Positions 18,691 to 55,460 of a stretch of DNA of 64,000 nt are shown here, in pieces. The notes under the pieces were generated by a model. That model saw only the letters and a list, made by a program, of their open reading frames with translations, had not been told where the DNA came from and did no database searches. Position 1 is the first letter of the stretch; the number at the start of each line of letters is the position of its first letter. The stretch lies in NCBI GenBank assembly GCA_018262095.1, contig JAGTRW010000002.1, forward strand, positions 1-64,000, written 5' to 3'. The position numbers were made by a program, and so were the translations under genes. The DNA comes from Pseudomonadota bacterium. Lineage in GTDB: Bacteria > Pseudomonadota > Gammaproteobacteria > Burkholderiales > Rhodocyclaceae.

Positions 18691-20148
18691 ATGCTCGATA
18701 CCGTGCTTGTCTGGTTTCGTCGCGACCTGCGCGATACCGATCATGCGGCGCTCGCCGAGGCTCTGCGGCGCGCGCGGCGCGTTTATTGCGCCTTCGTCTT
18801 CGACCGCGAGATCCTCGACGCGCTGCCGACACCAGGAGATCGCCGGGTCGAATTCATTCGCGAGTCGCTCGCTGAACTCGACCTCGCGCTGCGTGCACGC
18901 GGCGGCGGACTGATCGTTCGTCATGCGCTGGCGACCAGCGAGATTCCTCGACTGGCGCGCGAATTGGGCGTCGATGCGGTGTTCGTCAACCGCGACTACG
19001 AGCCGCAGGCCAAGGCGCGCGACGCGGCGGTCGCCGCCGCGCTGTGCGAGCACGGGATCGGTTTCGAGTCGTTCAAGGACCAGGTCATTTTCGACGGCGC
19101 CGAGGTGCTGACGCAGGCCGGTCGTCCCTACACGGTGTTCACGCCGTACAAGAACGCCTGGCTCAAGCGGCTCACCGACGACGATCATGCGCTGCACGCC
19201 ACCGATCGCGGCCAACTGGTCGCCGGCGCGCTGGCCAATGGCGTTCCGTCGCTGGCGCAGATCGGCTTCGCAGCGAGCGATCTGCGCCAGATCGGAATCG
19301 CTACCGGAATGTCCGGTGCCAAGCGGCTGATCGACGACTTCAGGCAGCGCCTCGCCGACTATGCGCAAACGCGCGACTATCCGGCGCTCAAGGGCGTCTC
19401 GTATCTCTCGGTCCACCTGCGCTTTGGCACCGTTTCGCCGCGCGAACTGGTGTCGCTGGCGATCGCCAGCGGCGCGCTGCGTGGCGCGGCTGGCGCGGCG
19501 ACCTGGCTTGCCGAACTGATCTGGCGCGACTTCTACTTTATGATTCTCGATCACTTCCCGCACGTTGCGCAACGCGCGTTCAAGCCCGCCTACGACGCCA
19601 TCGCCTGGCGACAGGGCGAGCACGCCGAAGAGCTGTTTGCTGCCTGGTGCGCGGCGCGCACCGGTTATCCGCTGGTCGATGCGGCGATGCGCCAATTGCG
19701 CAGCAGCGGCTATATGCACAACCGCTTGCGCATGGTCGTCGCCTCGTTTCTGTGCAAGGACCTGGGAATCGACTGGCGGCGTGGCGAAGCCTGGTTCGCG
19801 CGGCAGCTCAACGATTTCGACCTGGCCGCCAACAACGGCGGCTGGCAATGGGCCGCGTCGAGCGGCTGCGACGCGCAGCCCTACTTCCGAATTTTCAATC
19901 CGCTGACGCAGTCGCAACGCTTCGATCCGGACGGCCGCTTCATCCGCCGCTACCTGCCGGAACTGGCCAGCGTTCCCGACCGCTTCATCCACGCACCGTG
20001 GCTGATGAGCGCTGCCGAGCAATCCGCGTGCGGCGTCGTGATCGGACGCGACACCCCGGCGCCGCTCGTTGATCACGGCCAGGCGCGACTGCAGACGCTA
20101 GCACGCTACGCCGTGGTCAAAGCTCAGGTGCGCGACGACGCGACGTAG
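18691..20148 (+). CDS. phrB: Deoxyribodipyrimidine (CPD) photolyase
   Basis: 485 residues. N-terminal antenna-binding Rossmann domain begins VLVWFRRDLRDTDHAAL. The C-terminal FAD domain has SYLSVHLRFGTVSPRE, the WRDFYF helix, YMHNRLRMVVASFL and NNGGWQWAASSGCDAQPYFR, which are the FAD- and DNA-binding signatures of class I CPD photolyases. It repairs UV-induced pyrimidine dimers with blue light. The ATG follows AAGG by 6 bases. Its last 25 bases overlap the 3' end of chpA on the other strand (20124-20148). Confidence 0.95.
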   Translation: MLDTVLVWFRRDLRDTDHAALAEALRRARRVYCAFVFDREILDALPTPGDRRVEFIRESLAELDLALRARGGGLIVRHALATSEIPRLARELGVDAVFVNRDYEPQAKARDAAVAAALCEHGIGFESFKDQVIFDGAEVLTQAGRPYTVFTPYKNAWLKRLTDDDHALHATDRGQLVAGALANGVPSLAQIGFAASDLRQIGIATGMSGAKRLIDDFRQRLADYAQTRDYPALKGVSYLSVHLRFGTVSPRELVSLAIASGALRGAAGAATWLAELIWRDFYFMILDHFPHVAQRAFKPAYDAIAWRQGEHAEELFAAWCAARTGYPLVDAAMRQLRSSGYMHNRLRMVVASFLCKDLGIDWRRGEAWFARQLNDFDLAANNGGWQWAASSGCDAQPYFRIFNPLTQSQRFDPDGRFIRRYLPELASVPDRFIHAPWLMSAAEQSACGVVIGRDTPAPLVDHGQARLQTLARYAVVKAQVRDDAT

Positions 20149-25478: not shown

Positions 25479-25511
25479 GGGGCAAATCTCTCCGATCTTC
25501 GGCGTCGGCAA

Positions 25512-27659
25512 TCAGTCGACCTTGAAGCCGGCCACCGAACTCTTGAGCTCGGTGGCCAGGCCGGCCAGTTCGCCGACCGCGGTCGCCGTCCTTTGCGTAC
25601 CCGCCGTGGTCTGCTCGGTGACGCGCAGAATGTCCTGCATCTTGCCGGCGACGCCAGTCGCCGAATCGGCCTGATGGCGAGTCGCCGCGGAAATATTCTC
25701 GATCAGTTCGGCGAGGGTCTGCGAAACCTCGCCGATCTCGGCCAGCGCCTGCCCCGCCGCGTCGGAAAGCTTGGCGCCTTCGACCACGCCGCGCGTCGAC
25801 TCTTCCATCGCCGAGACGGCGCCCAGGGTATCGGTCTGAATCGTCTTGACGATCGCCGCGATCTGCTTGGTCGCTTCGCCCGAACGCTCGGCCAGGCGCT
25901 GCACTTCTTCGGCCACCACCGTGAAGCCGCGTCCCGCGTCGCCGGCCGACGCCGCCTGAATCGCAGCGTTGAGCGCCAGCACGTTGGTCTGCTCGGTAAT
26001 GTCGGAAATCAGTTCGACGATCTCGCCGATCTCCTGCGACGACTCGCCGAGGCGCTTGATCCGTTTCGACGTTTCCTGAATTTGTTCGCGGATTTCGTTC
26101 ATCCCCTTGATCGAATCCTGCACTGCCAGCGTCCCCTTGCCGGCGGCCGCCAGCGACTGGCGCGCGACCTGCGCCGACTGGTTGGCGTCGCCCGAGACCT
26201 GGGTCATCGAACTGGCCATCGCCAGCACCGAATGGCCGGCGGCCTGAATTTCGAGCGATTGGCGTTTGGCGGCGTCGAGCAATTCGGCCGACGTTTGCTG
26301 CGCGATTCCGGTGGCGGCGGTAACCCGACTCGCCGCATTGTTGATACGGCCGACCAGCACGCGCAATTCCTCGATCGTATAGTTGATCGAGTCGGCGATG
26401 GCGCCCGTGATGTCCTCGGAGACGGTCGCGGTGACCGTCAGGTCGCCATCGGCGAGGTCGCCGAGCTCGTTCATCAGACGCAGGATGGCGTCCTGGTTCT
26501 GGCGATTGACGAGTTCGCTGGTCTGCCGGCTCTGCTCGGCAACCTGCGCCTGACGGCGCGTCTCGTCGAGGTACACCTTGGCCATCATCGACAGCACGAA
26601 GAGCGCCAGCAGCACCAGCGCCGCCAGCGTCGCGCCATACGCCGCACGGTCGGTGATCCCCTGCTGGTAGGCGTGCGCCAGCCCGCCGGTGGCATCGAGC
26701 AGATCTTCACTGCCGCTGAAGATTTCAGACCCCGCATGCTTGGCGACGATCAATCGCTGCATGCTGCCCAAGATCCGGTTGACCGAAAACTGGTATTCGC
26801 GGAAGCTGTTTTCGAGCTCGCCGAGCTTGCGCCGCGTTTCCGGATCACTGGTGCCGACGATGCGCAACGGTTCGCTGCCCTTGAGTTGGGCGTTGAGCAG
26901 GTCACGGAAAGTATTGGTGTCCTTGCCCAGCAGAAAGGCAATCTCCGGACTGATTTCGTCGCCGACCAGCAACGAGCTGGCGTTCTTGGCGATCCGCTGG
27001 GTGAGCATGACCATCTGGTTGGCGGCAGCGATTTCACGCGCGCCCGAACCGGACTGCAGCTTGAGCGAAGCGACCTGCTCGGAGAGCTCGAGCAGCTGCG
27101 AATTGGTTCCGGTGATCGAACTCACGTCCTTGGACAAGGAAACCAGATTGGTTTCCATGTCGAGCAGTTGCACTGCATCCTTGTCGGTCACGCTCCAGGT
27201 CGCTGTCAATTTCTCGAGCTGCGGCCGCACGCTGTCGGGCGACGGCGGCACCGTGGTACCGGCCAGTTCGCCGCCTTCGGTCAAGCGCGCCAGGTTGCGC
27301 ACAAACTGGTTGTGCGAATCGCGCAGTTGCTTGAAGGCCGCGGTATTGCCCTGCAGCGCCAAGCTCGAGGCCTTGGCCAGACGCTGCGAGAGCATGCGCA
27401 TTTCACCGGCGGTGGCGATATAGACGCTGCCGTACGTCGACTCGCGGTTGTCGTGATAGATCACCGTGGCGATGATCAGCATCAGCAACAGCAGCAGGCC
27501 GCCGAGAATCTGCAATTGCTTGGTGACACCGTAGCGATCGAGAAAATGCATGCCGCGCCCGCTGCCCGGTCGCCGCTCGCTTGCCGACGTCGCCACCGGG
27601 CGCTGCGCACGGTCTTGGCGAGCAGACAAGAATTTCGGCCATTTCAGATCAAACACCAT
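25512..27659 (-). CDS. pilJ: Methyl-accepting chemotaxis protein PilJ
   Basis: 715 residues; ATG with GGAG 7 bases upstream. A short cytoplasmic N-terminus is followed by a first membrane helix ([20 protein letters not shown], about 48-67). A periplasmic region of about 270 residues contains two PilJ-type four-helix segments (both begin with a [10 protein letters not shown] / [11 protein letters not shown] pattern). The second membrane helix is near 345, then HAMP and the long coiled-coil signalling domain with the tip [13 protein letters not shown]. It is the sensor of the Pil-Chp array, reported in Pseudomonas to sense pilin or surface contact. It ends 33 bases before chpA. Confidence 0.94.
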
Positions 27660-39203: not shown

Positions 39204-39780
39204 ACCCGCAATATTCAAGCAGTTGCGGCAGCAAATCGGGAAAGCGCGTGAAGCTGTGGTCGCCGCCGTCGACAACGATCTGGCGACAGCCCGCGTAGCG
39301 TGCCACCGCCTGCCGGTAATCGAGCACCTCGTCGCCGGTTTCAACCAGCAGCAGATAGCGCTCGGGCGTGATCTGCGGCACTTCGAGCGCGCGCAACTCG
39401 CCGATATGTTCGGCGGTGAACTCGAACGACTCGCCGGTGTGCAGATTGGTTTGCGTGCCGACGAATTGGTCGAGCGAGATCGGCGCGACGACCGCCGGGT
39501 TGATCAACACCGCGCGCAGATCGTGGCGCTCGGCGAGCCAGGTCGCGTAGTAGCCGCCCAGCGAGCTGCCGACCAGCGTCAGCGGCCGGCCGCGCTGCGC
39601 GTCGATGATCGCTTCGACCTGCGCGATCGCCTCAACCGGAACGTGCGAGAGCGCCGGGCAGATGAGGCGATCGCCCAGCCCGCGCGAGTCGAGCGCGGCA
39701 GCGAGCAGTCTCACCTTCCACGACGCTGGCGACGAGCAGAAGCCGTGCAGATAGACGATCGCCGCAGTGACTGAGGTCAC
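39199..39780 (-). CDS. yqiA: YqiA/YcfP-type alpha/beta hydrolase (esterase)
   Basis: 193 residues from the GTG at 39778-39780, which overlaps the uppP stop (GTGA). A small alpha/beta hydrolase: [15 protein letters not shown] with the oxyanion HG, nucleophile Ser73 in [15 protein letters not shown], acid in [11 protein letters not shown], and His in VVDGGDHSF. The DGGDH and SSLGG motifs place it with YqiA, a thioester/palmitoyl-CoA esterase family. Start chosen because the longer open frame runs back through uppP in a shadow frame. Confidence 0.88.
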
Positions 39781-40601
39781 GCGCTGGCCCAGGCGACCAG
39801 GTCGAGCTGCCAGGTGACCAGAACGACGATGCCGAAAGCGATTCGATACCAGGCGAACGGCGTGAAGTCGTGGCTCGAGATGAAACGCAGCAGCCAGCGA
39901 ACGCACAGAAAAGCCGAGACAAAAGCGGCGACGAAGCCGACCGCCCACATGCCGACGTCGTCAGCGGAAAGCAGCGCGCGCTCCTTGTAGAGCTGGTAGA
40001 GCGTCGCCACGATCAGCGTCGGGATCGCCAGGAAGAAAGAGAACTCGGTCGCGGCGCGGCGCGACAGGCCGAAGAACAGGCCGCCGATGATCGTCGCGCC
40101 CGAGCGCGAGGTGCCGGGAATCAGCGCCAGCGCCTGCGCCAGCCCCATCTTGAGCGCGTCGAGCGGCTTCATTTCATCGACCGTCCGCACGCGAACCGTA
40201 TGCTCGCGGCGCTCGGCCCAGAGGATGAAGAAGGCGCCGACGATGAACGCGCTGGCGACCGTCGGCGCGTTGAAGAGCTGCGCCTTGATCGCCTTGCCGA
40301 AGAGCAGGCCGAGCGCAGCGAGCGGCGTAAAGGCGATCGCCAGGTTCAAGACCAGCCGGTTGGCCAGCCGCTCGCGCCCCAGTCCGGCGAGCACGCTGGC
40401 GATTCGCGCGCGGTATTCCCAGACGACCGCCAGGATCGCTCCCGACTGGATGACGATCTCGAACAGCTTGCCGCGCTCGTCGTTGAAGTTGAGCAGTTCG
40501 CCGGCCAGGATCAGGTGACCGGTCGACGACACCGGCAGGAACTCGGTGAGCCCCTCGACGACGCCGAGGACGAGTGCTTTGAGCAGAAGAACGAGATCCA
40601 C
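39777..40601 (-). CDS. uppP: Undecaprenyl-diphosphate phosphatase
   Basis: 274 residues, start GTG (40599-40601). It regenerates the C55 lipid carrier for cell-wall synthesis. BacA/UppP signatures: [20 protein letters not shown] (about 14-33) and the second active-site loop [17 protein letters not shown] (about 161-177). Seven to eight membrane helices. The reported bacitracin-resistance effect comes from gene dosage, not from a dedicated resistance function. Coupled to yqiA by four bases. A TAGAAT upstream (minus, about 40628-40633) may be the -10 box. Confidence 0.95.
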
Positions 40602-40880
40602 GGGAAGCGTCCAGAAAAAAGACGCATTCTAGCAGGCCGCAGCGCGGCGTCCGTCAATTGGCGACTCTGGCGTTGCCTGCCGCAGGCGCCGCATGCCTCC
40701 TGACGTTCCCGCGTAGATAGCCGAAGACCCGCGTCCAGCCTGGCTTGCAGGGCATGGCCCGGTTCTGCTTGGCAACGCCAGCAAGACGCGGACGATGTCG
40801 GTCATCTTGCGGGCAAGCGGATTTTCCGGCGGACGCGCAGAACCGCGCGCTGCGCGTCGCAACATTAGCCTCCGCCGCGC
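40602..40880. other. Intergenic region with an 11-bp inverted repeat
   Basis: No gene recognised. CTGGCGTTGCC at 40667-40677 is reversed as GGCAACGCCAG at 40771-40781, leaving 93 bases between. Short terminal repeats around a 115-base core would fit a small non-coding mobile element remnant, but one pair of 11-base repeats can occur by chance, and I see no clear target duplication. Confidence 0.4.
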
Positions 40881-43475
40881 TCAGTTGAAGGTATTGGAAA
40901 GGTCATTGACCTTCACGGTGTAATCGAGCACGTTGCTGCCCGAAGCGCTCGTGGCGCTGCTGTCGCATGTAAAAGTCGACGACATGTCGTCATAGGGGAA
41001 GGTGTAGCAAGTCGGGCAGGCGGTCTTTAGCCAGTTGATCGTCGGCAGCACATAAGCCACCCAATTGGGGTTCTGCGTCGTGTACACCACCGACGGGCGA
41101 GTGATCCCGCTCCAGTTGGTGCCACCGCAAGCCAACGCCGTGCTCATGTTCACCGAAGCGTCAGGCTTGTTCGCCGGTGCCGGGTTGGTGTAAGCGCTGT
41201 AGGTGTTATTGACGCAGAGCTGCAGGTCGCCGACCGAAACGGTGCTCTGCAACTTGAACGCGGGAACCACCGCGGACGCCGTCTGCAGGCTGAAAGGCGC
41301 GACGTTGCTGGCGGTCATGTTCCAGCCGTGGATTTGATTGGCAGTCGCCCAGGAATAGAACGTTCCGCAGACCCGAGACGAGAAAGGCGACGTTCCGCTC
41401 GGCGCCTTCGTGTAGTCCCAGCCGCAGCGCGGGCCGCTGGTCGCGCCACCCGAACAATCGGCTTGCACCGTGCAAGAGGTCGGCGTTGCCGAGCTCGGAT
41501 TGACGACGGCATAGTATGACGAAGGGCTATCCGTAATGCTGGTGCCGGACGGGAAATTCGCCGTACTGGGAGAAAAAGCCCAGCTGCTGGCCGGCAGATA
41601 TCCACTCGGGTTGGTCGCCTGATTTCCCGACATCGCGGTCATCGATCCGGCGGTTCCGCAGGTGTAGGCGGTGGTCGTGCTCGGCGTCATCTCGCTCGCC
41701 TTGGGGCCGAACTGAAGCGCGTAGTTGGCGCCGTTGATGATCGACACATCGTAGTAGTCGACCGCGTTGTGCTGGTAGGTCACTTCGGCCAGGGTCTGCG
41801 CCGCATAGGTCGAACCGGTCCCGGGCCTCGTCGGCGAGGGCGGGCAGCTGTTGCTGTTCTCGCACTTGACGACGTAATAGTTTCCGGACCACTGAACCTG
41901 CTGGTTACCCGCGGTGATTCCCGACCAGCTCGGGATGAACAGGCTGGCCGACGAATTCGGCGGAACCTTGTTGGCGGGAACGGTCTGCGTCGCCGAGGTG
42001 AATTGCGGCGCGTCCCAGTAGCAATAGAACGGAGTATCTTTGCCGGCGATGACGTTTTGTCCGCCCTGGACGCAAGTCGAACCGATCGGACAGGCGTTGC
42101 TCGGGTTGCTCCAACCGCACCGCGATTGCGCGTCGGCGACCGACTTGGCCAGATTGGCCGCGGCGCTGCCCGAAGCCACCGAGGTCGGCGAGATGAAGGC
42201 GTTGGCCGTTCCGCTATTGGCGTTGACGACGACGGTATCGGTCAGCGAATTGTTGGCGAAGGTCACCGTGCGGCCGCTGCTCAACTGGCTCGCATCCTGA
42301 ACCAGCAGATTGACCGTCGACGCGTAACTGGGCAGCGCCGCGTCCGCCGGCGTCGAACTGCCGGTCACCGCGACCGCCAGCGAGACCGCCCCGGCTTTCT
42401 GCGGATACAGGCCGTAGCCGCAGTTGGTGGTCGAATTGGCGATGGTCTGCGGACTCGTGTTGTCGAGACTCAGCTTGCACGTCACCGAAGTCATGGTGCC
42501 CGGACTGGTGTTGTTACCGTCGTCGAAGGCGTAGAAAACAAGAGTGGACGGATCATTGCTCGTCAGGGTGACGCTGTAACTCGAGGTGGTTAAGGTGTTT
42601 TCCGTCAGATTCACAAACAAGGGCGCTTTCATTCCCGTGTAGACCTGATTGCTGCCGTTTTGCGAAGCGACGGTAATCCTTCCGGCCTGCTGCTCCGCTG
42701 TGCCACGCCACGTGACGGTCATATTGTCTGCTGGGCCAAATGGTGCTTCCGGCGGGGCTTGCCAAGCGCCGACGACGCTAATCGTGCTGGTGAAATCAAT
42801 CGAGGGCGCCTTGGTCCCATCCAGCGTTCCCGAGATTATGCAGGTTGGCGACGCGGTCCATAACGCGCACTGCTGTACCGTAAAGGTCAAAGGACTTCCG
42901 GCGGGTTGGTTCATCGAGACGTAGAGCGGATTACTTTGCGGGATGATCTGCCCGCCGGATCCCGGCGAGAACTGGACCGTGATCGCAAACGGAATCGCCT
43001 GCCCACGGCTCCAGTAGACCTGCGCAGCTGCCGACGACGGCGTGACCGACAGCGACCCGTAGGGATTGGGCGAGGTGACGGTGACCTGCGCGAAATCGCC
43101 CTCGTAGCCGTCGGCATCGGCAAAGACGCGAACCGTTCCGGTCGCTCTCCCGGTCACCGTCAGCATGCAGGGAGAAGCCTGGCCCAAGCCGCTGGAGAGC
43201 ACGCACGACGATGGCGCGATGTGCGCCAGCGTCGGCTCGGAAACTCTGAAATACACAGTCTGATTGACCAGCCCCTGGCTCCCGGCCAGTTCGAAAAGGA
43301 CTTCCTTGCTCGCCCCCTTGCTCAGGGTAACGGTTTCCGGGACGATGTTGAGCTGACCGTTTGAGGTCGGGGACGAGGTCGCACTGCCAGAGCTTCCGCT
43401 ATCACTCCCCCCGCATGAAATCAATACCGAACAGAGTAAGCATGCACCGAGTCTTGCCAGTCGTTTGGTATCCAC
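40881..43475 (-). CDS. Large lipoprotein with a thaumatin-like C-terminal region
   Basis: 864 residues. The signal peptide ends in the lipobox LISC (Cys21), followed by GGSDSGSSGS, so it is a lipoprotein, probably at the outer membrane or surface. Residues about 30-430 are Ser/Thr/Gly-rich beta sequence with repeated Ig-like strands (VTVTSPNPYGSLSVTPSS). The C-terminal half matches thaumatin-like proteins: LAEVTYQHNAVDYYDVSIINGANY (near 565-588; plant form 'LAEFTL...DFYDVSLVDG'), CTVQADC, and TACPTCYTFPYDDMSSTFTC (about 819-838; plant 'TACPxAYSYAYDDxxSTFTC'). From about residue 450 it has 16 cysteines, the plant number, though the end lacks 'FCP' so pairing may differ. It is alone between uppP and pfkA. 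Role unknown; glycan binding or cleavage is a guess. Confidence 0.72.
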   Translation of the reverse strand: MDTKRLARLGACLLCSVLISCGGSDSGSSGSATSSPTSNGQLNIVPETVTLSKGASKEVLFELAGSQGLVNQTVYFRVSEPTLAHIAPSSCVLSSGLGQASPCMLTVTGRATGTVRVFADADGYEGDFAQVTVTSPNPYGSLSVTPSSAAAQVYWSRGQAIPFAITVQFSPGSGGQIIPQSNPLYVSMNQPAGSPLTFTVQQCALWTASPTCIISGTLDGTKAPSIDFTSTISVVGAWQAPPEAPFGPADNMTVTWRGTAEQQAGRITVASQNGSNQVYTGMKAPLFVNLTENTLTTSSYSVTLTSNDPSTLVFYAFDDGNNTSPGTMTSVTCKLSLDNTSPQTIANSTTNCGYGLYPQKAGAVSLAVAVTGSSTPADAALPSYASTVNLLVQDASQLSSGRTVTFANNSLTDTVVVNANSGTANAFISPTSVASGSAAANLAKSVADAQSRCGWSNPSNACPIGSTCVQGGQNVIAGKDTPFYCYWDAPQFTSATQTVPANKVPPNSSASLFIPSWSGITAGNQQVQWSGNYYVVKCENSNSCPPSPTRPGTGSTYAAQTLAEVTYQHNAVDYYDVSIINGANYALQFGPKASEMTPSTTTAYTCGTAGSMTAMSGNQATNPSGYLPASSWAFSPSTANFPSGTSITDSPSSYYAVVNPSSATPTSCTVQADCSGGATSGPRCGWDYTKAPSGTSPFSSRVCGTFYSWATANQIHGWNMTASNVAPFSLQTASAVVPAFKLQSTVSVGDLQLCVNNTYSAYTNPAPANKPDASVNMSTALACGGTNWSGITRPSVVYTTQNPNWVAYVLPTINWLKTACPTCYTFPYDDMSSTFTCDSSATSASGSNVLDYTVKVNDLSNTFN

Positions 43476-43649
43476 TATTGCTCCCCGCTTTTAGTGTGAA
43501 ATAACCACTAGGCCAGGATGGCAATATATTCCGAGTAGCTTGCACGCACAACTTTCCCCGGCGTCAGAATAGCCGTCGACTCTTTTGAAGCAGATCCCGC
43601 TTTGGCGCCTGAGTTACAGAGCGCTTCGGCGAGTCTTGGCCGGCGACGT

Positions 43650-44918
43650 CTACAGCGCGAACTGCGCGAACTTCTGGCCGGTCGCTGCGAGAACGCCGAA
43701 CCAGGCCGGGCTGTCGAGGTCGAGCCGCTTCTTGTGCTGGGCCAGCAATTCGATCGGCACGTGCGTGAATTTGTCGTGCTGGAAGCCGATCACCAGCCCG
43801 GTCTTGCCGGCCATCGCGGCATGCACCGCGTTGCGCGCGAAGAAGTCGCAGAGGACGGCGTCCTCGGCGCCTGCCGCGACGCTGCGGATCAGGTAGCTCG
43901 GATCGAAGTAGCGCATCACGTGGGGGATCTTCTCGGCCTTGAAGTAGGCGTCGATCTTCTCGCACAGGAAAGCGCCGATGTCCTTGGCCTTGACGTTGCC
44001 CGAAGCGTCGCGCTGTTCGTCGCCGGCCTTGAGTAGATGCTGGCCAGCGCCCTCGGCGACCAGGATCACCGCGTGTGCGCGCTTCTCGACGCGTTCCTTG
44101 AGCGCGGCCAGGAAACCGTCGTCACCGTCGAGAACGAACGGCACTTCGGGAACCAGGGTGAAGTTGACGTCCTGGCTGGCGATCGTCGCGCCGGCGGCGA
44201 TGAAGCCGGCATCGCGCCCCATGATCTTGACCACCGAGATGCCGTTATGCACGCTGTGCGCCTCGGTATGCGCGCAGTTGATGGCCTTGGCCGCCTCCTC
44301 GACGGCGGTGACGTAGCCGAAGGTTCGCGAAACGAAGGGGACGTCGTTGTCGATCGTCTTCGGCACGCCGACCACCGCCAGCGCGTAACCGCGTTGCCGC
44401 GCTTCCTGGAAGAGCGCCGCACCACCGCGCTGGGTGCCGTCGCCGCCAATCACGAACAGCATATTGATCTTGCGCCGGATCAGGTTATCGACCGCGGCGC
44501 TGATGTCGACCGGCCCGCGCGAGGTGTTGAGCTTGCTGCCGCCTTCCTTGTGGATGTCCTCGACGAACTCCGGCGTCAGCGGGATCGGCTCGGAGCCGCG
44601 CCACGGGTCGAGTCCCTGATAGCCATTGACGAAGCCGACGATCTCGCGCACACCGTAGCCGTAGTGCAGTTCGAGCACCAGCGAACGGATCACGTTGTTG
44701 AGCCCGGGGCACAGGCCGCCGCAGGTGACGATTCCGGCGCGCGCTTGCTGCGGATCGAAGAACAGCTTTTCGCGCGGCCCGGCGACTTCAAACAGCAGCT
44801 CCTCCTTGGGCGGCCGATCAGGATCGACGATGACGTTGAACAGCACGCGCGCCTTGTCGCTGACGTGGTGCTCAAGCGGTGAGTCGAAAAGGGCTTCGCC
44901 AAGCGTCGTGATCTTCAT
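43650..44918 (-). CDS. pfkA: ATP-type 6-phosphofructokinase (plant/trypanosome-like long form)
   Basis: 422 residues from the ATG at 44916-44918. Phosphofructokinase motifs: GIVTCGGLCPGLNNVIR, GFVNGYQGL, FVIGGDGTQRGG, VGVPKTIDND and KIMGRDAGFIA. The glycine in GGDGT (rather than GGDD) marks ATP users in general; combined with PKTIDND this pattern is typical of the plant/trypanosome-like ATP-dependent clade. It phosphorylates fructose 6-phosphate in glycolysis. A PPi-type enzyme is encoded 600 bases upstream in the same direction (45518-47224), with a small gene on the other strand between. Confidence 0.88.
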   Translation of the reverse strand: MKITTLGEALFDSPLEHHVSDKARVLFNVIVDPDRPPKEELLFEVAGPREKLFFDPQQARAGIVTCGGLCPGLNNVIRSLVLELHYGYGVREIVGFVNGYQGLDPWRGSEPIPLTPEFVEDIHKEGGSKLNTSRGPVDISAAVDNLIRRKINMLFVIGGDGTQRGGAALFQEARQRGYALAVVGVPKTIDNDVPFVSRTFGYVTAVEEAAKAINCAHTEAHSVHNGISVVKIMGRDAGFIAAGATIASQDVNFTLVPEVPFVLDGDDGFLAALKERVEKRAHAVILVAEGAGQHLLKAGDEQRDASGNVKAKDIGAFLCEKIDAYFKAEKIPHVMRYFDPSYLIRSVAAGAEDAVLCDFFARNAVHAAMAGKTGLVIGFQHDKFTHVPIELLAQHKKRLDLDSPAWFGVLAATGQKFAQFAL

Positions 44919-45043
44919 GATTTTTGTCCGGAAAGCGTGAGGGATTTCGAGCAAGCCGCAGTATCACCGACGCAGGCTGAGCGGTCAAATGCGCGACGCG
45001 CCGACGGGCTTACGAAGCGCTTTGGCGTTGGCCGCAGGCACGG

Positions 45044-45049
45044 TAAAAT
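45044..45049 (+). promoter_or_regulatory. -10 box directly before the adhesin-E-like gene
   Basis: TAAAAT at 45044-45049 is followed by eight bases (cgcgcccc) and then ATG 45058. TTGGCG at 45022-45027 lies 16 bases upstream and is an acceptable -35. No ribosome site is present, so a leaderless or nearly leaderless transcript is likely. Confidence 0.5.
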
Positions 45050-45057
45050 CGCGCCCC

Positions 45058-45450
45058 ATGAGGAAAATACTTATTCTGGCGCTGGCGCTCTTGAGCATCG
45101 ATGCGCGTGCGGAATGGACCGAGATCCAGAAATTCGACGACGGCATGCGCGTCTTTGTCGACAAGGCCAGCGCGCGACGCAGTGGCGAGACCGCGCAGGT
45201 CACGCACCTGGTGCGCTGGGGCGAGCCGCAGCTCGAACCGGACAGCCAAGCCTACCGGTCGACGGTCGTGCGTACGCGCTACGACTGCGTCGCCAAGCGC
45301 GAAAGGTACCTGGCTTCGACGTCTTACGCGGGAACGATGGGCGACGGCGCCAAGATCATCGAAGACGACGACGAAGCCGAGGCGTGGTACTCGATCTCCG
45401 AAGCGTCGATGGAAGACAAACTCTGGAAGATCGCCTGCGCCGCCAAATAG
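45058..45450 (+). CDS. Surface-adhesin-E-like exported protein
   Basis: 130 residues from ATG 45058. Signal peptide MRKILILALALLSIDARA, cut before EWTEI. The mature part follows the pattern of the small 'surface-adhesin protein E' family (Pfam Adhesin_E): W at the start, VDKASARRSGETAQVTHLV, YDCVAKRERYL, GTMGDGAKI and a terminal W-K-I-A-C. Two cysteines (YDC and IAC) could form a disulfide. The family name comes from Haemophilus protein E, but most members, like this one, have no proven adhesion role. It faces pfp tail to tail with a shared terminator between. Confidence 0.75.
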   Translation: MRKILILALALLSIDARAEWTEIQKFDDGMRVFVDKASARRSGETAQVTHLVRWGEPQLEPDSQAYRSTVVRTRYDCVAKRERYLASTSYAGTMGDGAKIIEDDDEAEAWYSISEASMEDKLWKIACAAK

Positions 45451-45517: not shown

Positions 45518-47224
45518 TCAGCCGATCTTGAACGCCAGCGATTCGGACTTCGAGTTCAGGGCAACGCTGATCGGCTGCTGATAGGCCGCCGGCCCCCACA
45601 ACTGGCGCGGACCGGGCGAGGCGAAGAGGTCGCTGGCCGCCCACTCGGCGCGGCGCGCGGCGAAGTACTGCATCGCCGGCGAATCGACCTTGACCAGCGC
45701 CTTCTCGATCACGAACTCGTCCTGACCGTGGCGGCGCTCGATGTTGAGCAGACCGGAGAGCGGGATCGCCTGCGGCGTCCCGCCGGTCGTCAGGCCGGTG
45801 ACGGTGGCCATGTAGCCCGAACGGCCGTCGAGGATCAGCGAGCCGGCGGTGAGTCCGAGGTTGTAGGTGTAGGCGGCGTCGAACAGCGTCGGCGCGCCGC
45901 AGCGACCTTCGTAGCCCAGGAAATGGCAGTGCGCCGAGAACGGAACCTTGACGTTGATTTCCTTGACCCGCGCATGAACCATATCGACCAGCAGCTTCTC
46001 GGTCGGAATCAACGAGACCTGCAGATTGCCGTGCGAGTCGCGGTCGGCGAGCAGCATCCTGACGACGTAGGCCGGCAGCGAAGCGAACAGGCGCGCGTTG
46101 TCGGCCGAAAGCTTGTCCTGGATGAAGTCGGCCTTGGTGTCCTGCGGCTCGTCGGCGAATTCGGCAGCGTTGTGCGCCAGCGCGTCGTTGAGTTCGGCGA
46201 TCAGCGCGTTCATCTCGGGGATGAACTCGATCAGCCCTTCGGGAACGAGCACGACGCCGTGGGTGATCCCCTTGGCGGCGCGCGCGACGACGATCTGCGC
46301 GATCTGATCGACGATCGCCGCGATCGATTGGCGCTTGGCGGCGACTTCCTCGGAGATCAGCGTCACCGCGGCCTTGGTCTGCAGCGCGACCTCGATCGTC
46401 ACGTGCGACGCCGAGCGCCCCATCAATTTCACGAAGTGCCAGTACTTGAGCGAGGACTTGGTGTCCTGCAGGATGTTGCCGACCATTTCGCTGTAGATCT
46501 TGGTCGCCGTATCGAAACCGAAGGAAATCGGCAGCAGGTCGCCGATCTGCAGGTCGCCGTCGATCGTCTTGGGAACGCCGATCACCTGCACGCCCGAACC
46601 GTCGGCCTTGATGCCCTTGAACAGAAATTCGGCGAGCACCGCGGCGTTGGTGTTCGAATCGTCGCCGCCGACGATCACGATGGCGTCGAGATTGTGCTTG
46701 ATGCAGGTCGCCTTGACCTGCGCGAACTGCTCGTCGGTCTTGATCTTGGTGCGGTCGGTACCGAGGAAGTCGAAGCCGCCGGTGTTGATGATGGCATCGA
46801 CGTCAGCGTCGGTGATCTCAAAGAGATTGCCGAGCAGCAATCCCTTGGGGCCAGGCTTGACGCCGAGCAGCGTGTTGCCCGCGCCGAGCACGCGCTTGAT
46901 TCCGCACACCACGTTGTGGCCGCCGGAGGCCGGGCCGCCCGAGAACAGCACGGCGACGCGCTTGCCCTGCGCCGCCTTGGCGTTGGTGCCGGACGCGGCG
47001 AGCACGACGTTGCCCGACGCCTTGACCGAGTTGGGGAAGCTCTTGGCGACGCTGTCGCTGTCCTTGGTGCTCAGCACCCGCGCCGTATTGGCAAAACTCA
47101 CGGCCTGCGGCGCGTTCGCCGAACCGAAGGCGGCGCAGACGGGAAGCGTAAGCTGGCGCACCGCCAATTCGAAAAGCGACTGGTGCGCTTCCATTTGCTG
47201 CAACTGTTGTGCCAGAGTGCTCAT
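45518..47224 (-). CDS. pfp: Diphosphate--fructose-6-phosphate 1-phosphotransferase (PPi-PFK, long form)
   Basis: 568 residues from the ATG at 47222-47224, preceded by GAGGA. Motifs: VLFSGGPASGGHNVVCG, VIVGGDDSNTNA, VIGVPKTIDGDL, KLMGRSASHVT and HFLGYEGRCGAPT. The Asp in GGDDS, which replaces the ATP-type Gly, and Lys in PKTIDGD are the accepted marks of PPi-dependent phosphofructokinase. Length matches the long 'beta-subunit-like' PfpB type. The reaction is reversible, so it serves glycolysis or gluconeogenesis while saving ATP. An ATP-type paralogue lies downstream at 43650. Confidence 0.93.
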   Translation of the reverse strand: MSTLAQQLQQMEAHQSLFELAVRQLTLPVCAAFGSANAPQAVSFANTARVLSTKDSDSVAKSFPNSVKASGNVVLAASGTNAKAAQGKRVAVLFSGGPASGGHNVVCGIKRVLGAGNTLLGVKPGPKGLLLGNLFEITDADVDAIINTGGFDFLGTDRTKIKTDEQFAQVKATCIKHNLDAIVIVGGDDSNTNAAVLAEFLFKGIKADGSGVQVIGVPKTIDGDLQIGDLLPISFGFDTATKIYSEMVGNILQDTKSSLKYWHFVKLMGRSASHVTIEVALQTKAAVTLISEEVAAKRQSIAAIVDQIAQIVVARAAKGITHGVVLVPEGLIEFIPEMNALIAELNDALAHNAAEFADEPQDTKADFIQDKLSADNARLFASLPAYVVRMLLADRDSHGNLQVSLIPTEKLLVDMVHARVKEINVKVPFSAHCHFLGYEGRCGAPTLFDAAYTYNLGLTAGSLILDGRSGYMATVTGLTTGGTPQAIPLSGLLNIERRHGQDEFVIEKALVKVDSPAMQYFAARRAEWAASDLFASPGPRQLWGPAAYQQPISVALNSKSESLAFKIG

Positions 47225-47405
47225 GCATTGATCCTCGATAGTGAACGATTGGTAAAATTTTCCGGCCGACGCGGGCGATCGCAGGATTCGCAAGACGCCG
47301 TTGCCAGGCACTAGCGGCGCGCCATTGCCTGCGATTTTACCTCAATCGTCGCGGCCCCGTAGCGCGCGCCTGGCGCAAGGGGTGAAGGCTCGCCGCGCGA
47401 CTTGC

Positions 47406-49978: not shown

Positions 49979-51496
49979 TCAGGCCGGTGCTTTGACGTCG
50001 GCCCAGAGCGGCGCGAGCGCGCCGGCGACGCGCTGGTAGCGAGCGAATTTCCTTTCATAGATTTCGCTGCGCGAAGGATCGGGCTCGATACGGCATTTGA
50101 TCTTCGCCATCTGCGCGGCCGCCTGCGGCAGGTCGCGATAGACGCCGGCGGCGACCGCCGCCGCCATCGCGCAGCCGAGCGCGCCGAGTTCGCGGGTGGC
50201 GACGATGTCGACCGGCAGCTTGAAGACGTCGGCGAACATCTGCGCCCAGAACGGCGAATTGGCGGCGCCGCCGGCGAGCCTGACGGCGTCGGTGTGGCTG
50301 CGCTGGGCGAGCAGTTTTTCCAGATGCACGCGGTGACAAAAGACGATTCCTTCGAGCACCGCGCGGATGATCTGCCCCCGGCTGTGGTGACTGTCGACGC
50401 CGATCAGACAGGCCTTGGCCTGCGGGTCGTAATTCGAGCCGAAGAGGTAGGGCAGGAAAACGATTGCCGAATCGTCCGGCTCGACCTTTTGAGCGAGCGC
50501 GCAGCAATGGTCGAAGACGTTGACCTTGAGTTGCTCGGCAGCGCGCTTCTCTTCGCCCATGAACATGTCGACGAACCAGGCGAAGTTGCTCGCCGAAGTC
50601 GGACTGCACTCCTCGATCAGGTAGTAGCCGGGAAGGCAGTAGAGCGAATTCATCATCACCGACTTGTCGAGCACCGGCGCCCTGGCGATGTACTCGTTGA
50701 TGCTCCACGTTCCGGCGATGACGCAGACGTGGTCTTGATTGACGATATTCATGGCGATCGCGCAGGCGTCGATGTCGAACATTCCGCCGGCGAGCGGTGT
50801 TCCCGGCGCGAGTCCGGTCTCGCGGGCAGCGCGCTCGCTCACCGCGCCGCAAAAATCGGTCGATTGCTTGAGCGGCGGCAGCGCGTCATAAAGTTCGTCG
50901 ATGCCGAATTCGGCGAGCAGCTCGCGATCGAAACCACCGTCGCGGACGTTGAACAGGTTCGACCCTGAATAGTCGGTCAGCTCGGCAAACGCTTCGCCGG
51001 TGAGCTTGAAGCGGATGAAATCCTTGACCGCGAAAATCCACTTGATGTTGGCGATGAGCTCGGGCCGCTGGTCCTTGAGCCAGCGCAGCAAGGATACCGG
51101 CTGGCAGGCCAGGATCTGCTGGAAGGTCTTGGCGAAAACCCGCTCGGCGGTGCCGTCGGCGGCCCATTGCTGCGGGTAGATCGACGCGCGGCTGTCGGTC
51201 GACACGATGCCGGCGCCGCACGGCTTATCGTCGCGGCCCCACAGGTAGAGTCCCTTGCCGTGGCCGCTGCAGGCGACGCCGGCGATCCTGATGTCGCCGG
51301 CCAGGCGCAGCGCCTCACGAATCACCTGGCAGTTGATCCGCCACAGCTCGTCCATGTCGCGCTCGGTGAAGCCGGCCTGCGGCGTCAGCATCGCAAGCCG
51401 CGCCGACGACGCGGCGATCTCGCTGCCGAGTTCGTCGAAGATCACCGCCTTGACCATCGACCCGCCGTTGTCGACGCCCATGAAATAAGTGCTCAC
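49979..51496 (-). CDS. lyxK: FGGY-family carbohydrate kinase, L-xylulokinase-like
   Basis: 505 residues from the GTG at 51494-51496, with GGGAG 6 bases upstream. Two-domain FGGY kinase: FMGVDNGGSMVKAVIFDELG (phosphate loop), FTERDMDELW, VACSGHGKGLYLW, PVSLLRWLKDQRPE, GTPLAGGMFDIDA, then VIAGTWSINEY and LEGIVFCHRVHLEKLL, RLAGGAANSPFW. The QAGFTERDMDELW and CSGHGKGLYL stretches follow E. coli LyxK, which phosphorylates L-xylulose (3-keto-L-gulonate relatives also occur). No sugar transporter or epimerase is next to it. Substrate identity is inferred from family resemblance. Confidence 0.82.
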   Translation of the reverse strand: MSTYFMGVDNGGSMVKAVIFDELGSEIAASSARLAMLTPQAGFTERDMDELWRINCQVIREALRLAGDIRIAGVACSGHGKGLYLWGRDDKPCGAGIVSTDSRASIYPQQWAADGTAERVFAKTFQQILACQPVSLLRWLKDQRPELIANIKWIFAVKDFIRFKLTGEAFAELTDYSGSNLFNVRDGGFDRELLAEFGIDELYDALPPLKQSTDFCGAVSERAARETGLAPGTPLAGGMFDIDACAIAMNIVNQDHVCVIAGTWSINEYIARAPVLDKSVMMNSLYCLPGYYLIEECSPTSASNFAWFVDMFMGEEKRAAEQLKVNVFDHCCALAQKVEPDDSAIVFLPYLFGSNYDPQAKACLIGVDSHHSRGQIIRAVLEGIVFCHRVHLEKLLAQRSHTDAVRLAGGAANSPFWAQMFADVFKLPVDIVATRELGALGCAMAAAVAAGVYRDLPQAAAQMAKIKCRIEPDPSRSEIYERKFARYQRVAGALAPLWADVKAPA

Positions 51497-51570
51497 AGAT
51501 TGCTCCCGATTGGTTGTTGTCTGGCCGTCAGCCGGCCTGCCGCTGGTCGCCGAGCATAGCAGAGCCCCCG

Positions 51571-52344
51571 TCAGCGCGGAACAAAGCTGATGCGCCCATC
51601 GGACTCGATCGCTTCGAGCGGGTATTGATAGAGCGATGACAGCCGCTCGGCGGTCAGCATCTCGCGCACCGGACCGCACTCGCTGCGGCCGTCGCCGTGG
51701 ATCAGCAGCGCGCGGTCGCAAAAACGCCAGGCCAGCGCCGGTTCGTGCAGCACCATGGCGAGCGCGGCGCCACGCTCGCGAGCGGCCGCCGCGAACAGTT
51801 CGAGCATGGCGATCTGGTGCTTGAGGTCGAGGTGCGCGATCGGCTCGTCGAGCAGCAGCAGCTTCGGCTGCTGCGCGAGCAGCGTGGCGATCGCCAGGCG
51901 TTGGCGTTCGCCGGCCGACAGCGTTTGAATGTCGCGCGCCTCGAAACGCGAAAGGTCGACGGCGGCGAGCGCCTGGCGAACGATCTTGGCGTCCTGCTCG
52001 GATTCCCAGCCCCAGCGTTCGAGGTGCGGGTGACGGCCGACCAGCGCCGTTTCGAGCACCGTCGACGCGAAAGCGTCGCCGCGCACCTGCGGCAGCCAGC
52101 CGCGAATCAGCGCGCTCGCCCGTGCGCCCAGCGCCGCGTAGCTGGCGCCGTCGATCAGCACCTCGCCCGAGCGGGGCGCGCGCAGCCCGGCGAGTACCGA
52201 CAACAGCGTCGATTTTCCGGCGCCGTTGCGCCCGAGAATCGCCAGCCGCTCGCCAGCATGCAGGACGAAGTCGAGATCGCGGCAGAAGATCTTGTCGCCG
52301 ATGGCAACGGTCAGTTTTCGCGCTTCGAGAATCGGGGTTCCCAT
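51571..52344 (-). CDS. btuD: Cobalamin ABC transporter ATP-binding protein
   Basis: 257 residues. Walker A ILGRNGAGKSTLL (37-49), signature LSAGERQRLAIA, Walker B LLLLDEPIAHLD, and the switch His in MVLHEPALA. The family is Fe-siderophore/B12 importers. It starts 1 base after btuC stops. The B12 assignment rests on the riboswitch upstream of btuB and on the operon. No periplasmic binding protein (btuF) is adjacent. Confidence 0.9.
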   Translation of the reverse strand: MGTPILEARKLTVAIGDKIFCRDLDFVLHAGERLAILGRNGAGKSTLLSVLAGLRAPRSGEVLIDGASYAALGARASALIRGWLPQVRGDAFASTVLETALVGRHPHLERWGWESEQDAKIVRQALAAVDLSRFEARDIQTLSAGERQRLAIATLLAQQPKLLLLDEPIAHLDLKHQIAMLELFAAAARERGAALAMVLHEPALAWRFCDRALLIHGDGRSECGPVREMLTAERLSSLYQYPLEAIESDGRISFVPR

Positions 52345-53340: not shown

Positions 53341-55305
53341 TTAGAAATCGTAGCGTGCGGAAACGAAAACGCTGCGACCATCGGCCGGGTAGTAGTAGGT
53401 GTCGTTCCTGTAAGCCGAGTAAGCTGCGTAAGGCGAATACTTCTTGTCGAAGGCGTTGATCAGCTTGGCCGTGATCTTCCACGGCTTGAGGTTCCACACC
53501 GATTGCAGGTCGAGCGTCGTATAGCCGGCGAGCATCCCCTGCGTATTGGCATAGTCACTGCCGTAACGACGTTCGCCGACGTAGCGCGCCACTGCCGAAT
53601 AGCTGCCGGTGCGGCCGGTGTTCCAGGTCAGCTGAGCGCTCGCCTGGTTGCGCGCCACCAGCGGAACTTCGTTGCCGGAGTAGGTTCCGCTGCGGAAAGT
53701 GGCATCGACGTAAGCGTACGATGCCTTGGCTTGCCAATCGTCGGAAATTTTCCAGTCGGCTTCGAGTTCGCCGCCCTGACGGCGCGTCGGATCGAGGTTG
53801 GTATTGGACGATCCGTCGAAGCCGATTTCGTCGGTCAGCTCGATCCGGTAAAGCGCAGCGCGAAGCTTCGCCGGTCCGACCGCGACGCTGCCGCCGACTT
53901 CGTTGCTGGTGCCGTGCTGCGGCTTGAGGTCGCCGGCGAAGACCGGCGTGTAGGTGATCGGGTCATAGCCGAACAGCTCGTCGAGATTGGCGAAGCGGAA
54001 GGTCGTTCCGCTCTTGCCGTAAACGCGCCAACCGCCCGCCGCATAGGCCAGGCCGACGTCATAGGCGTTCCGGGTGCGCGCCGAATCGCCGTCCATCGCA
54101 GGCGAGAACGACCAGCCGGCGCCGTACGCATCCTGACTCGCCTGCTGCTTCATTCGCTGGCTGCGGCCGCCGACGGTGAGACTGAGCTCGTCGGAAAACT
54201 TGGTGACGTTCTGCAGGTAAAGCGACGAGCTTTGCTGCGAAGCGCCCTGGCTGGCGTAGCCGGTGTTGTCCGAATTGACCTTGCCGTCATAGTAGTCGTA
54301 ACCGACCACCGTTTCGCTGGGCAGCGCCTCAAGGCCATGGCGCCAGCGCAAGCGCGGCGTGAACGATGTCGTCTGGCGCACGCGGTCGCTGGCCATCCCA
54401 GAAGCTACGTATTTCGCGTCGAGATTCTGACGCTCGTGGGCAACTTCGCCTTCAAGCGTCGCGTCCTCATTGAGGCGGTACGAAACGCCTGGACGGATGC
54501 GGTAGCCGTCGCGACTCTCCGTATCGCTTGGGGTTCGCGTACTGCGCGGATCATCGCGATAAGCGGCGCTGAAGACCGAACCCGGCAGCCCGTTCGACTC
54601 CTTATAGACGGCGAAATCGGTGAACACCTCGCCGCGGTCGAGCAGCCAGCCGACGCGCCCGCTGGCAGTGCGCTGGTCCTGCTGGCTGTTCTGGCGGTAA
54701 CCGTCAGCGTCGGCATAATTGACGAACAGATTGTAGTAGGCCTGATCGTTGCCGTTGGCCAGCTGAATATCGGTCCCTTTGTAGCCATAGCTGCCGACCG
54801 TCGCAGTCAGCGCAGCGACCTGATTGCCCGATTTGTTGGTGATGATGTTGATCACGCCACCGGTCGCCCCGTCACCGTAAAGCACGGTTCCCGAGCCGCG
54901 CATGATCTCGATTCGCTCGACGCTCTCGAGCGGGATCGACGACCAGATGATGCTGCCCATGTCGACCGGATTGACGCGCAGGCCATCGACCAGAATCAGC
55001 GTATTGCTGGTCGCCGTCTCGCCGAAGCCGCGCATATCGACCGTCGCGTTGCGGCCCATGGCGCCGCCAAGTTGGCGGACATCGACGCCGGCGCGCGTGC
55101 TCAATACGTCGGGCAGGTTCTGCGCGGGGGTATTGCGGATGTCCTGACGGGTGATGACGGAAACATTGGCAGCAACGTCCGAGTCGGGTTCGCGAAAACG
55201 CGTCGCGGTCACGAGCACGGCATCAGCCTGCGGGTCGGCGGCGAGCGCAGGAAAGGCGGCAAACAGAGCCAAGGTGGACAAGGTAAAGGAACGGCGTGGA
55301 TTCAT
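53341..55305 (-). CDS. btuB: TonB-dependent outer membrane cobalamin receptor
   Basis: 654 residues from the ATG at 55303-55305 (GGGAG upstream). Signal peptide MNPRRSFTLSTLALFAAFPALA. The TonB box region follows (DAVLVTATRFRE), then the plug (NLPDVLSTRAGVDVRQLGG, RIEIMRGSGTVLYGDGATGGVINI) and a 22-strand barrel ending with Phe (VSARYDF), as outer membrane proteins do. Imports corrinoids with TonB energy. Controlled by the cobalamin riboswitch in its leader. Confidence 0.93.
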   Translation of the reverse strand: MNPRRSFTLSTLALFAAFPALAADPQADAVLVTATRFREPDSDVAANVSVITRQDIRNTPAQNLPDVLSTRAGVDVRQLGGAMGRNATVDMRGFGETATSNTLILVDGLRVNPVDMGSIIWSSIPLESVERIEIMRGSGTVLYGDGATGGVINIITNKSGNQVAALTATVGSYGYKGTDIQLANGNDQAYYNLFVNYADADGYRQNSQQDQRTASGRVGWLLDRGEVFTDFAVYKESNGLPGSVFSAAYRDDPRSTRTPSDTESRDGYRIRPGVSYRLNEDATLEGEVAHERQNLDAKYVASGMASDRVRQTTSFTPRLRWRHGLEALPSETVVGYDYYDGKVNSDNTGYASQGASQQSSSLYLQNVTKFSDELSLTVGGRSQRMKQQASQDAYGAGWSFSPAMDGDSARTRNAYDVGLAYAAGGWRVYGKSGTTFRFANLDELFGYDPITYTPVFAGDLKPQHGTSNEVGGSVAVGPAKLRAALYRIELTDEIGFDGSSNTNLDPTRRQGGELEADWKISDDWQAKASYAYVDATFRSGTYSGNEVPLVARNQASAQLTWNTGRTGSYSAVARYVGERRYGSDYANTQGMLAGYTTLDLQSVWNLKPWKITAKLINAFDKKYSPYAAYSAYRNDTYYYPADGRSVFVSARYDF

Positions 55306-55460
55306 GACAGGGTTCTCCCGGTGCCGACAAGCGTCCCCGCAAGCCGGCAAACTAAAAATCGGAAGGACGCGAGATGAGAAAGACTGTCGAGATGAAGGTG
55401 AGCGCTGGTGAGCTGAGCCATGCATGCCGTGTCCGCCTCCCCGCGGCACTTCCGTCGAAG

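What the first reader, a model, noticed from the sequence alone, without database searches (positions are those of the whole stretch)
40881..42200. Thaumatin-like domain in a bacterial lipoprotein
The C-terminal half of this lipoprotein shows thaumatin-family landmarks: LAEVTY followed by YYDVSIINGANY, and near the end TACPTCYTFPYDDMSSTFTC. From about residue 450 there are 16 cysteines, as in plant thaumatin-like proteins with eight disulfides. Of the acidic cleft residues used by plant forms to bind beta-glucans, the Glu of LAE and the Asp of YYDVS are kept. Thaumatin-like proteins are well known in plants, fungi and animals but rarely described in bacteria, and fusion behind a lipobox and Ser/Thr-rich Ig-like repeats is unusual. 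A surface glycan-binding or anti-fungal/anti-eukaryote role is conceivable.
Basis: partly seen in the sequence, partly recalled or inferred. Interest (0 to 1): 0.8.

Follow-up and report, generated by a model that had tools for sequence, protein, structure and literature searches.

The report
Bacterial surface lipoprotein with thaumatin-like domain
This bacterial gene encodes a lipid-anchored protein with an Ig-like stalk that carries an enlarged version of the thaumatin-like fold known from plant defence proteins, probably used to grip a sugar polymer outside the cell; such proteins are scattered among environmental bacteria and seem hardly described.

Summary
ORF 40881-43475 (-) encodes an intact 864-aa protein: signal peptide with lipobox LIS|C21, a beta-sandwich stalk, and a thaumatin-like domain (402-864). 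Pfam PF00314 matches at 4.5e-9, over cut-off. A 24-row profile finds solved thaumatin-like proteins (TLPs) at up to 5.8e-22. An AlphaFold2 model (pTM 0.78) has TLPs as its first 27 Foldseek hits.

Two details need correction. The 16 cysteines are not the plant set: four lie in a family-specific insertion and several plant-position cysteines are missing. Of the cleft residues (REDDD), E564, D576 and D830 are kept, the Asp102 position is Asn581, and the Arg is deleted in the window's clade.

Bacterial TLPs are known (Amycolatopsis structure; Legionella LegT). Apparently undescribed is this family of long-stalked TLP lipoproteins: 31 loci in one scan, 21 with a lipobox, in proteobacteria and Myxococcota, without neighbours conserved beyond close relatives. 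The window copy sits alone between pfpA and uppP, which lie 37-1048 bp apart in 7 relatives.

Best reading: a surface-displayed, probably non-hydrolytic glycan binder, gained horizontally. Ligand and exposure are inferred.

The parts
40881..43475 (-). whole gene, 864 aa, GTG start, TGA stop
   Evidence: GC3 0.78 against 0.83-0.88 in five nearby genes
43481..43486 (-). GGGGAG, Shine-Dalgarno-like sequence 5 bases before the GTG
   Evidence: sequence printed; no sigma-70-like promoter found in 40550-43750, and the 2 terminator-like sites found are no more than shuffles give (2.7)
43413..43475 (-). signal peptide and lipobox (LIS|C21, followed by Gly-Gly)
   Evidence: sequence; pattern script one search finds it in the window and, by my reading, in 21 of 31 loci
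42273..43412 (-). stalk, residues 22-401: beta-sandwich (Ig-like) modules
   Evidence: strands in the full-length model (low confidence) and generic beta-sandwich Foldseek hits; Pfam He_PIG in 2 of 18 and I-set in 1 of 18 members, none in the window protein
40884..42272 (-). enlarged thaumatin-like domain, residues 402-864
42021..42119 (-). Cys-rich part of the family-specific insertion (C453, C462, C468, C485)
   Evidence: the A2 profile needs about 80 positions (29 to 110) where Mal d 2 has about 14 (29 to 43); Cys table
41784..41786 (-). E564, at the position of osmotin Glu84 (E of REDDD)
   Evidence: 24 of 24 rows; osmotin cleft numbers from PMC4360817 (passages); placed by the alignments
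41748..41750 (-). D576, at the position of osmotin Asp97
   Evidence: 24 of 24 rows
41733..41735 (-). N581 at the position of osmotin Asp102 (five residues after D576, as in osmotin)
   Evidence: N in 18, G in 5, Q in 1 of 24 rows; Asp in none
40986..40991 (-). D829-D830; D830 at the position of osmotin Asp185
   Evidence: both 24 of 24 rows; equal-length stretches 814-843 and 169-198 of 1pcv_A listed (that alignment was not printed)

Best explanation
The gene encodes an outer-membrane lipoprotein. The lipobox anchors it, two to three Ig-like beta-sandwich modules act as a stalk, and the C-terminal thaumatin-like domain, held by disulfides, is displayed away from the membrane. Its cleft, reduced to E564, D576 and D830, most likely binds a polysaccharide, with beta-glucans of fungi, oomycetes, algae or plant debris as first candidates because eukaryotic TLPs bind them. 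It would hold the cell on such material or capture it, rather than cut it. The gene was probably acquired horizontally as a single gene. Shown: lipobox pattern, domain layout, thaumatin fold (by profile and model), residue conservation, patchy distribution. Inferred: outer-membrane sorting, surface exposure, number of stalk modules, disulfide pairing, the ligand, non-hydrolysis.
For: PF00314 over cut-off in the window protein and a PF00314 match (E up to 0.01) in 18 of 18 members of A3, the window counted. Profile-to-PDB E 5.8e-22 with apple TLP Mal d 2. AF2 model pTM 0.78 with TLPs as hits 1 to 27, 12 of them at E up to 0.001 (Pru av 2 E 3.8e-6, TM 0.57 by target length; Mal d 2 TM 0.60). E564, D576, D829, D830 invariant in 24 of 24 rows. 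Lipobox in the window and 21 of 31 loci. Ig-like stalk. No neighbour shared with the window in more than one of 20 loci. No match to this protein in the 58 relatives. pfpA-uppP gap 37-1048 bp in 7 relatives against 3048 bp here. beta-1,3-glucan binding or an acidic cleft linked with it is reported for eukaryotic TLPs (PMC3048497, PMC2924342, PMC13148976; passages read).
Against: The cleft is incomplete: the Asp102 position is Asn and the Arg is gone in this clade, so the plant ligand may not carry over. No glycan-active gene is directly beside it. Surface exposure is not shown. The full-length model is poor (pLDDT 60.9, pTM 0.50). The domain model has low-confidence loops (block means 44-60 over residues 732-801), its five runs range from pLDDT 71.9 to 52.4, rmsd to the two best TLP hits is 8.8-9.8 A, and TM by query length is only 0.29-0.31 because the domain is twice as long.
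Confidence: 0.55

Rival explanations
1. It is a hydrolase of the GH152 kind: a cell-attached beta-glucanase that feeds the bacterium.
For: GH152 enzymes are TLPs; a whitefly GH152 was shown to cut beta-1,3-1,4-glucan (PMC11800479, passages). E and two Asp of the REDDD motif are invariant here. A sugar-kinase-family gene (FGGY, 49979-51721) and a TonB-dependent receptor (53341-55449) lie about 6.5 and 10 kb away, though nothing ties them to this gene.
Against: The Asp102 position has no Asp in 24 of 24 rows; from memory, Glu84 and Asp102 are the proposed catalytic pair (not confirmed in a call). The Arg is missing in the window clade.
Confidence: 0.15
2. It acts against eukaryotic microbes, as antifungal or anti-protist surface factor or as a secreted effector like LegT.
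For: Antifungal activity is widespread among eukaryotic TLPs (PMC3048497, passages). The NCBIfam LegT model matches 18 of 18 members of A3, window counted, best 8e-37. Relatives occur in Myxococcota and Legionellales.
Against: The LegT score here is 44.4 against an equivalog cut-off of 1200. A lipobox would tether the protein to the bacterium. The DotI/IcmL family was not found in the genome, but no control genome had it either, so this is weak.
Confidence: 0.12
3. The domain is a protein-binding or enzyme-inhibitor module, the glycan cleft being a relic.
For: Some TLPs inhibit enzymes or bind proteins (PMC3048497, passages). The cleft is eroded and large insertions add new surface.
Against: Three cleft acids remain invariant over 24 rows, including rows at 26-30% identity to the window.
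Confidence: 0.13
4. A periplasmic or cell-envelope structural lipoprotein with no outside ligand.
For: A lipobox alone does not prove surface exposure (general knowledge; no call bears on it).
Against: Patchy presence (this protein in 1 of 59 genomes; PF00314 in 9 of 399) argues against a housekeeping envelope role.
Confidence: 0.05

Closest known systems
Plant thaumatin-like (PR-5) proteins: Mal d 2 (3zs3), Pru av 2 (2ahn), osmotin (1pcv)
   Same: Fold, WSG strand, LAE and YDVS motifs, CPxxY...DD..(S/T)(S/T)F motif.
   Different: Domain of 463 aa against about 205-222 aa, two large insertions, different cysteine set, REDDD incomplete, lipoprotein with stalk.
Amycolatopsis rifamycinica thaumatin-like protein (PDB 7p22)
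   Same: A bacterial TLP with solved structure, Foldseek hit 4, E 5.0e-5; profile E 8.5e-11.
   Different: 244-residue chain, no stalk in that chain; actinobacterial. The library search listed no paper on it by title.
Legionella LegT (NCBIfam NF045527; listed as 'Thaumatin domain' in a table of PMC2824747, one passage read)
   Same: The only NCBIfam match, 457-856 against model positions 377-759 of 776, so it too has a long N-terminal part.
   Different: 44.4 bits against cut-off 1200; an injected effector by annotation, whereas this one has a lipobox. LegT itself was not fetched.
GH152 beta-glucanases
   Same: Same fold family; partial acidic cleft.
   Different: Asn at the Asp102 position; no activity known.
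Ricin-B lectin plus GH64/thaumatin-like proteins (L009, L010)
   Same: Bacterial, same order, GH64/thaumatin-like C-terminus joined to carbohydrate-binding repeats.
   Different: Different N-terminal modules; L010 matches GH64 and not PF00314, though one search counted it over the PF00314 cut-off with its neighbours in the frame.

Membership tests
Thaumatin family, PF00314 (fold family) | HMM score over the curated cut-off | tested here: met
   36.7 bits against 27.4
Thaumatin family, PF00314 (fold family) | thaumatin fold | tested here: met
   on a predicted model: Foldseek hits 1-27 are TLPs; best E 3.8e-6, TM by target 0.57-0.60 for the two best
typical plant-type TLP (PR-5) | 20-26 kDa protein with 16 conserved Cys in eight disulfides (PMC3048497) | tested here: not met
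   16 Cys but four in an insertion absent from plant forms; N-terminal plant Cys is Ser410, C-terminal one absent, two loop Cys absent; 864 aa
typical plant-type TLP (PR-5) | REDDD acidic cleft | tested here: not met
   E, first D and last D kept; Asp102 position Asn; Arg deleted in window, L025, L026 but kept in 21 of 24 rows
LegT (NF045527) | score over the equivalog cut-off | tested here: not met
   44.4 against 1200
LegT (NF045527) | Dot/Icm secretion system in the genome | tested here: inconclusive
   no PF11393 match, but no control genome rang either
GH152 | beta-glucan hydrolysis | not testable with these tools
   needs enzyme assay; sequence makes it less likely
bacterial lipoprotein | signal peptide with lipobox near the N-terminus | tested here: met
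   LISC at residues 18-21 after a hydrophobic stretch, by pattern; no SignalP-type program was available
outer-membrane surface lipoprotein | sorting to and exposure on the outer face | not tested
   residue after Cys is Gly, not Asp (sorting rule recalled); exposure needs experiment

The most novel reading that the evidence does not exclude
An undescribed, horizontally moving family of Ig-stalk lipoproteins lets unrelated environmental bacteria display a remodelled thaumatin fold as a surface glycan grip, and Legionella LegT, listed as a thaumatin-domain effector, is an offshoot of this bacterial surface family rather than a direct gift from a eukaryote.
Probability: 0.3. Interest if true: 0.65.

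Novelty: new variant of a known kind. Interest (0 to 1): 0.5.

Why it matters
Thaumatin-like proteins are studied mainly as plant and fungal proteins. A bacterial family that displays the fold on a lipid-anchored stalk would give a new set of candidate binders for beta-glucans and other polymers. It would show how far the acidic cleft can change while the fold lasts, and it offers a possible bacterial source for the thaumatin domain of LegT. The family also occurs in a named isolate, Peristeroidobacter soli JW-3 (L039), so its function can be tested directly.

Tried and rejected
Chance resemblance: rejected. The 16-Cys argument: rejected, since the count is right but the positions differ. Cysteine pairs: four pairs are present or absent together without exception in 28 rows (410/857: 7 both, 21 neither; 606/837: 25 and 3; 453/468: 22 and 6; 785/798: 9 and 19), as disulfide partners would be. 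Two pairs that need not be partners (538/606, 538/837) come close too, with one exception each. On the tree the four pairs change only 1 to 3 times and the sign tests reach nothing (p 0.5-1), so this fits pairing but does not prove it. The 28 rows are 27 different sequences (L008 and L043 are identical) and L032-L034 are near-copies.

Phage or plasmid carriage: no match in phages, plasmids or, for the domain profile, viral contigs. Operon or system membership: see the full report. Contamination of the bin: unlikely, as neighbouring pfpA is 70-87% identical to the genus relatives' copies and uppP 77-81% where seen. Naming the genus: tried with a contig of relative G010 against plasmids, no match. 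The organism stays an unnamed member of an order that, by contig-length matches between genome search and named loci (for example 59,142 bases, G406 and SSGX01000034.1), contains bins called Burkholderiales and Neisseriales.

Literature: ten searches were answered. I saw their listings and opened passages of six papers only (PMC2824747, PMC3048497, PMC11800479, PMC13148976, PMC2924342, PMC4360817). Of these six, only PMC2824747 names a bacterial thaumatin-domain protein in the passages shown. The library lacks most subscription journals, so a description elsewhere is possible.

Full report
What is there. The ORF at 40881-43475 on the minus strand is intact, starts with GTG behind a GGGGAG, and encodes 864 residues. 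Its first 21 residues are a signal peptide ending in a lipobox (LIS|C21, then Gly-Gly). Residues 22-401 are beta-rich in the full-length model, and that model's structural hits are generic Ig-like and other beta-sandwich assemblies with low TM scores. Among the 18 members of A3 (window counted), Pfam sees He_PIG Ig-like repeats in 2 and an I-set domain in 1, not in the window protein. Residues 402-864 are the thaumatin-like part.

Is the thaumatin match real? Yes. PF00314 reaches 36.7 bits, E 4.5e-9, cut-off 27.4. Single-sequence search of PDB chains finds plant TLPs at up to 1.4e-5. A profile of 24 rows finds them at up to 5.8e-22. A profile of 21 rows, without the window, L025 and L026, gives the window domain 381 bits, and the best of 1000 shuffles is below zero. 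The AlphaFold2 model of the domain (24 rows, pLDDT 71.9, pTM 0.78) has TLPs as its first 27 PDB hits: cherry Pru av 2 at E 3.8e-6, apple Mal d 2, a Puccinia TLP, the Amycolatopsis TLP 7p22, thaumatins and other plant TLPs. Ostreolysin (E 0.045) and GH64 glucanase (E 0.12) come after them. Against this, rmsd is 8.8-9.8 A for the two best hits. Among more distant relatives most pass PF00314 too: 8 of 9 are over the cut-off, while L047 is below (17.4 bits).

There are 16 cysteines from residue 453 to 837, but the plant set of 16 is not what is conserved. In the alignment to Mal d 2 the bacterial family carries an insertion of roughly 65 residues after the first strands, and C453, C462, C468 and C485 lie in it. 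A second, larger expansion lies between the middle strands and the CPxxY motif (profile positions 191-406 against Mal d 2 residues 125-191). The N-terminal plant Cys is Ser410 here, the C-terminal one is absent, and two loop cysteines present in most relatives (A2 columns 171 and 206, 19 and 21 of 24 rows) are missing in the window protein. A third (column 193, 22 of 24) is a gap in the window row, but its C544 nearby is probably the same residue. C823 in CPTCY is extra. Four Cys pairs come and go together in 28 rows, on so few branches that this only fits pairing.

The cleft. Osmotin's cleft is described as Glu84, Asp97, Asp102 and Asp185 (PMC4360817, passages), and the wider motif as REDDD (PMC3048497, passages). 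By the alignments these are E564, D576, N581 and D830. E564, D576, D829 and D830 are invariant in 24 of 24 rows. The N581 position is N in 18, G in 5, Q in 1. The Arg is present in 21 of 24 and deleted with its loop in the window, L025 and L026. L017 lacks it too, and on the tree this is a single change around a four-row clade (window, L025, L026, L017; support 100/100). So the cleft is partly kept, with two of five positions changed in the window.

Relatives and distribution. PF00314 rings once in the window's own genome. Of 59 relatives searched with the protein, itself included, only itself matches; among those at least 90% complete and at most 5% contaminated, 1 of 45. PF00314 is found in 9 of 399 genomes drawn from the order and 3 of 398 from the phylum, 2 of them over the cut-off, the window's genome counted in both. 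Six of the nine order hits belong to one genus with low GC (its loci 0.34-0.40; window gene 0.61), and two (L009, L010) are of the ricin-lectin/GH64-like type. A scan of genome contigs gave 31 loci, several from the same bin: Burkholderiales and Neisseriales bins, Halothiobacillus, Peristeroidobacter, other gammaproteobacteria, three bins named Anaeromyxobacter, Pyxidicoccus, Myxococcus, Binataceae and Legionella/Legionellales. The window and 21 of the 31 have a lipobox. In the other 10 I count none: L049 gave a pattern match at residue 123 that I discount, and L053 is an 84-aa fragment. In the tree of 28 rows the Anaeromyxobacter bins L036 and L042 sit next to Burkholderiales L027 and L028 (87/90), and Myxococcota need three changes, a figure that 111 of 500 shuffles match. 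With bins and paralogues this suggests but does not prove transfer.

Genome setting. The neighbours are a phosphofructokinase-family gene (43650-44954, here called pfpA) and a BacA/UppP gene (39777-40601, uppP). For 24 genus relatives the best pfpA locus was fetched. In 7 uppP follows pfpA after 37, 38, 42, 303, 720, 928 or 1048 bp; in the other 17 uppP was not in the fetched flank of 1.5 kb or less, and in several another gene follows. None of these flanks holds a thaumatin match. Here the gap is 3048 bp with only this gene in it. Its GC (0.61) and GC3 (0.78) are lower than in five nearby genes (0.64-0.66, 0.83-0.88). Comparing ORFs of the window and 20 loci (L025-L044, several with short flanks), no non-thaumatin gene is shared beyond close relatives (L032-L034, L038 with L040), apart from a few pairs and one set of three (L026, L027, L041), which I did not identify; the window shares one such ORF (51571-52344) with L027. 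So it is a solitary gene, probably gained here after the genus split; loss in all sisters is less likely but not excluded.

How it most likely works. Lipobox, stalk and a terminal binding domain are the layout of a surface-displayed binder. The invariant acids mark the same cleft that in eukaryotic TLPs is linked with beta-glucan binding (PMC3048497, PMC13148976, PMC2924342, passages). GH152 glucanases share the fold (PMC11800479, passages), but the family lacks the Asp102-type residue, so I favour binding over cutting. The genome has four secretin matches, so export routes exist, but none is tied to this protein.

Known or new. The domain belongs to the thaumatin fold family, but the protein is not a typical plant-type TLP. 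Bacterial TLPs are known from PDB 7p22 and from LegT. LegT's NCBIfam model matches 18 of 18 members of A3 (best 8e-37), yet far below its cut-off for the window protein (44.4 against 1200). Ten searches of the open-access library turned up no description of such lipoproteins in the listings and passages I saw. I rate it a new variant of a known kind, interest 0.5.

Noticed in passing
L009:220-2094 and L010:1495-2883: Two proteins from the same order join ricin-B lectin repeats to a GH64/thaumatin-like C-terminus, another bacterial use of the fold beside sugar-binding modules.
   Followed up: partly
window 44989-45450 (+): Small protein with a Surface-adhesin protein E domain (PF16747, E 1.6e-25), transcribed away from pfpA.
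   Followed up: no
window 20124-27659 (-): Type IV pilus chemosensory genes: a 1795-aa CheA-like kinase with four Hpt stretches, CheW and receiver domains, and a PilJ-type receptor.
   Followed up: no
window 43650-44954 and 45518-47311 (-): Two different phosphofructokinase-family genes close together (PF00365); most genus relatives give two matches as well.
   Followed up: no
window 49979-51721 and 53341-55449 (-): An FGGY-family carbohydrate kinase and a TonB-dependent receptor, 6.5 and 10 kb from the thaumatin gene; no link was tested.
   Followed up: no
L058, L063, L064, L065 between pfpA and uppP: The pfpA-uppP gap varies from 37 to 1048 bp among 7 relatives, so this spot may accept inserts repeatedly; the content of the longer gaps was not examined.
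   Followed up: partly
L023:1333-2271 (-): A 313-aa stretch from the same class matches the middle of the thaumatin model just over cut-off (28.3 bits), yet has no Cys and no evident signal peptide.
   Followed up: no
L006, L013, L017 (G233) and L004, L011, L018 (G406): Several divergent thaumatin paralogues within single genomes of one genus.
   Followed up: partly
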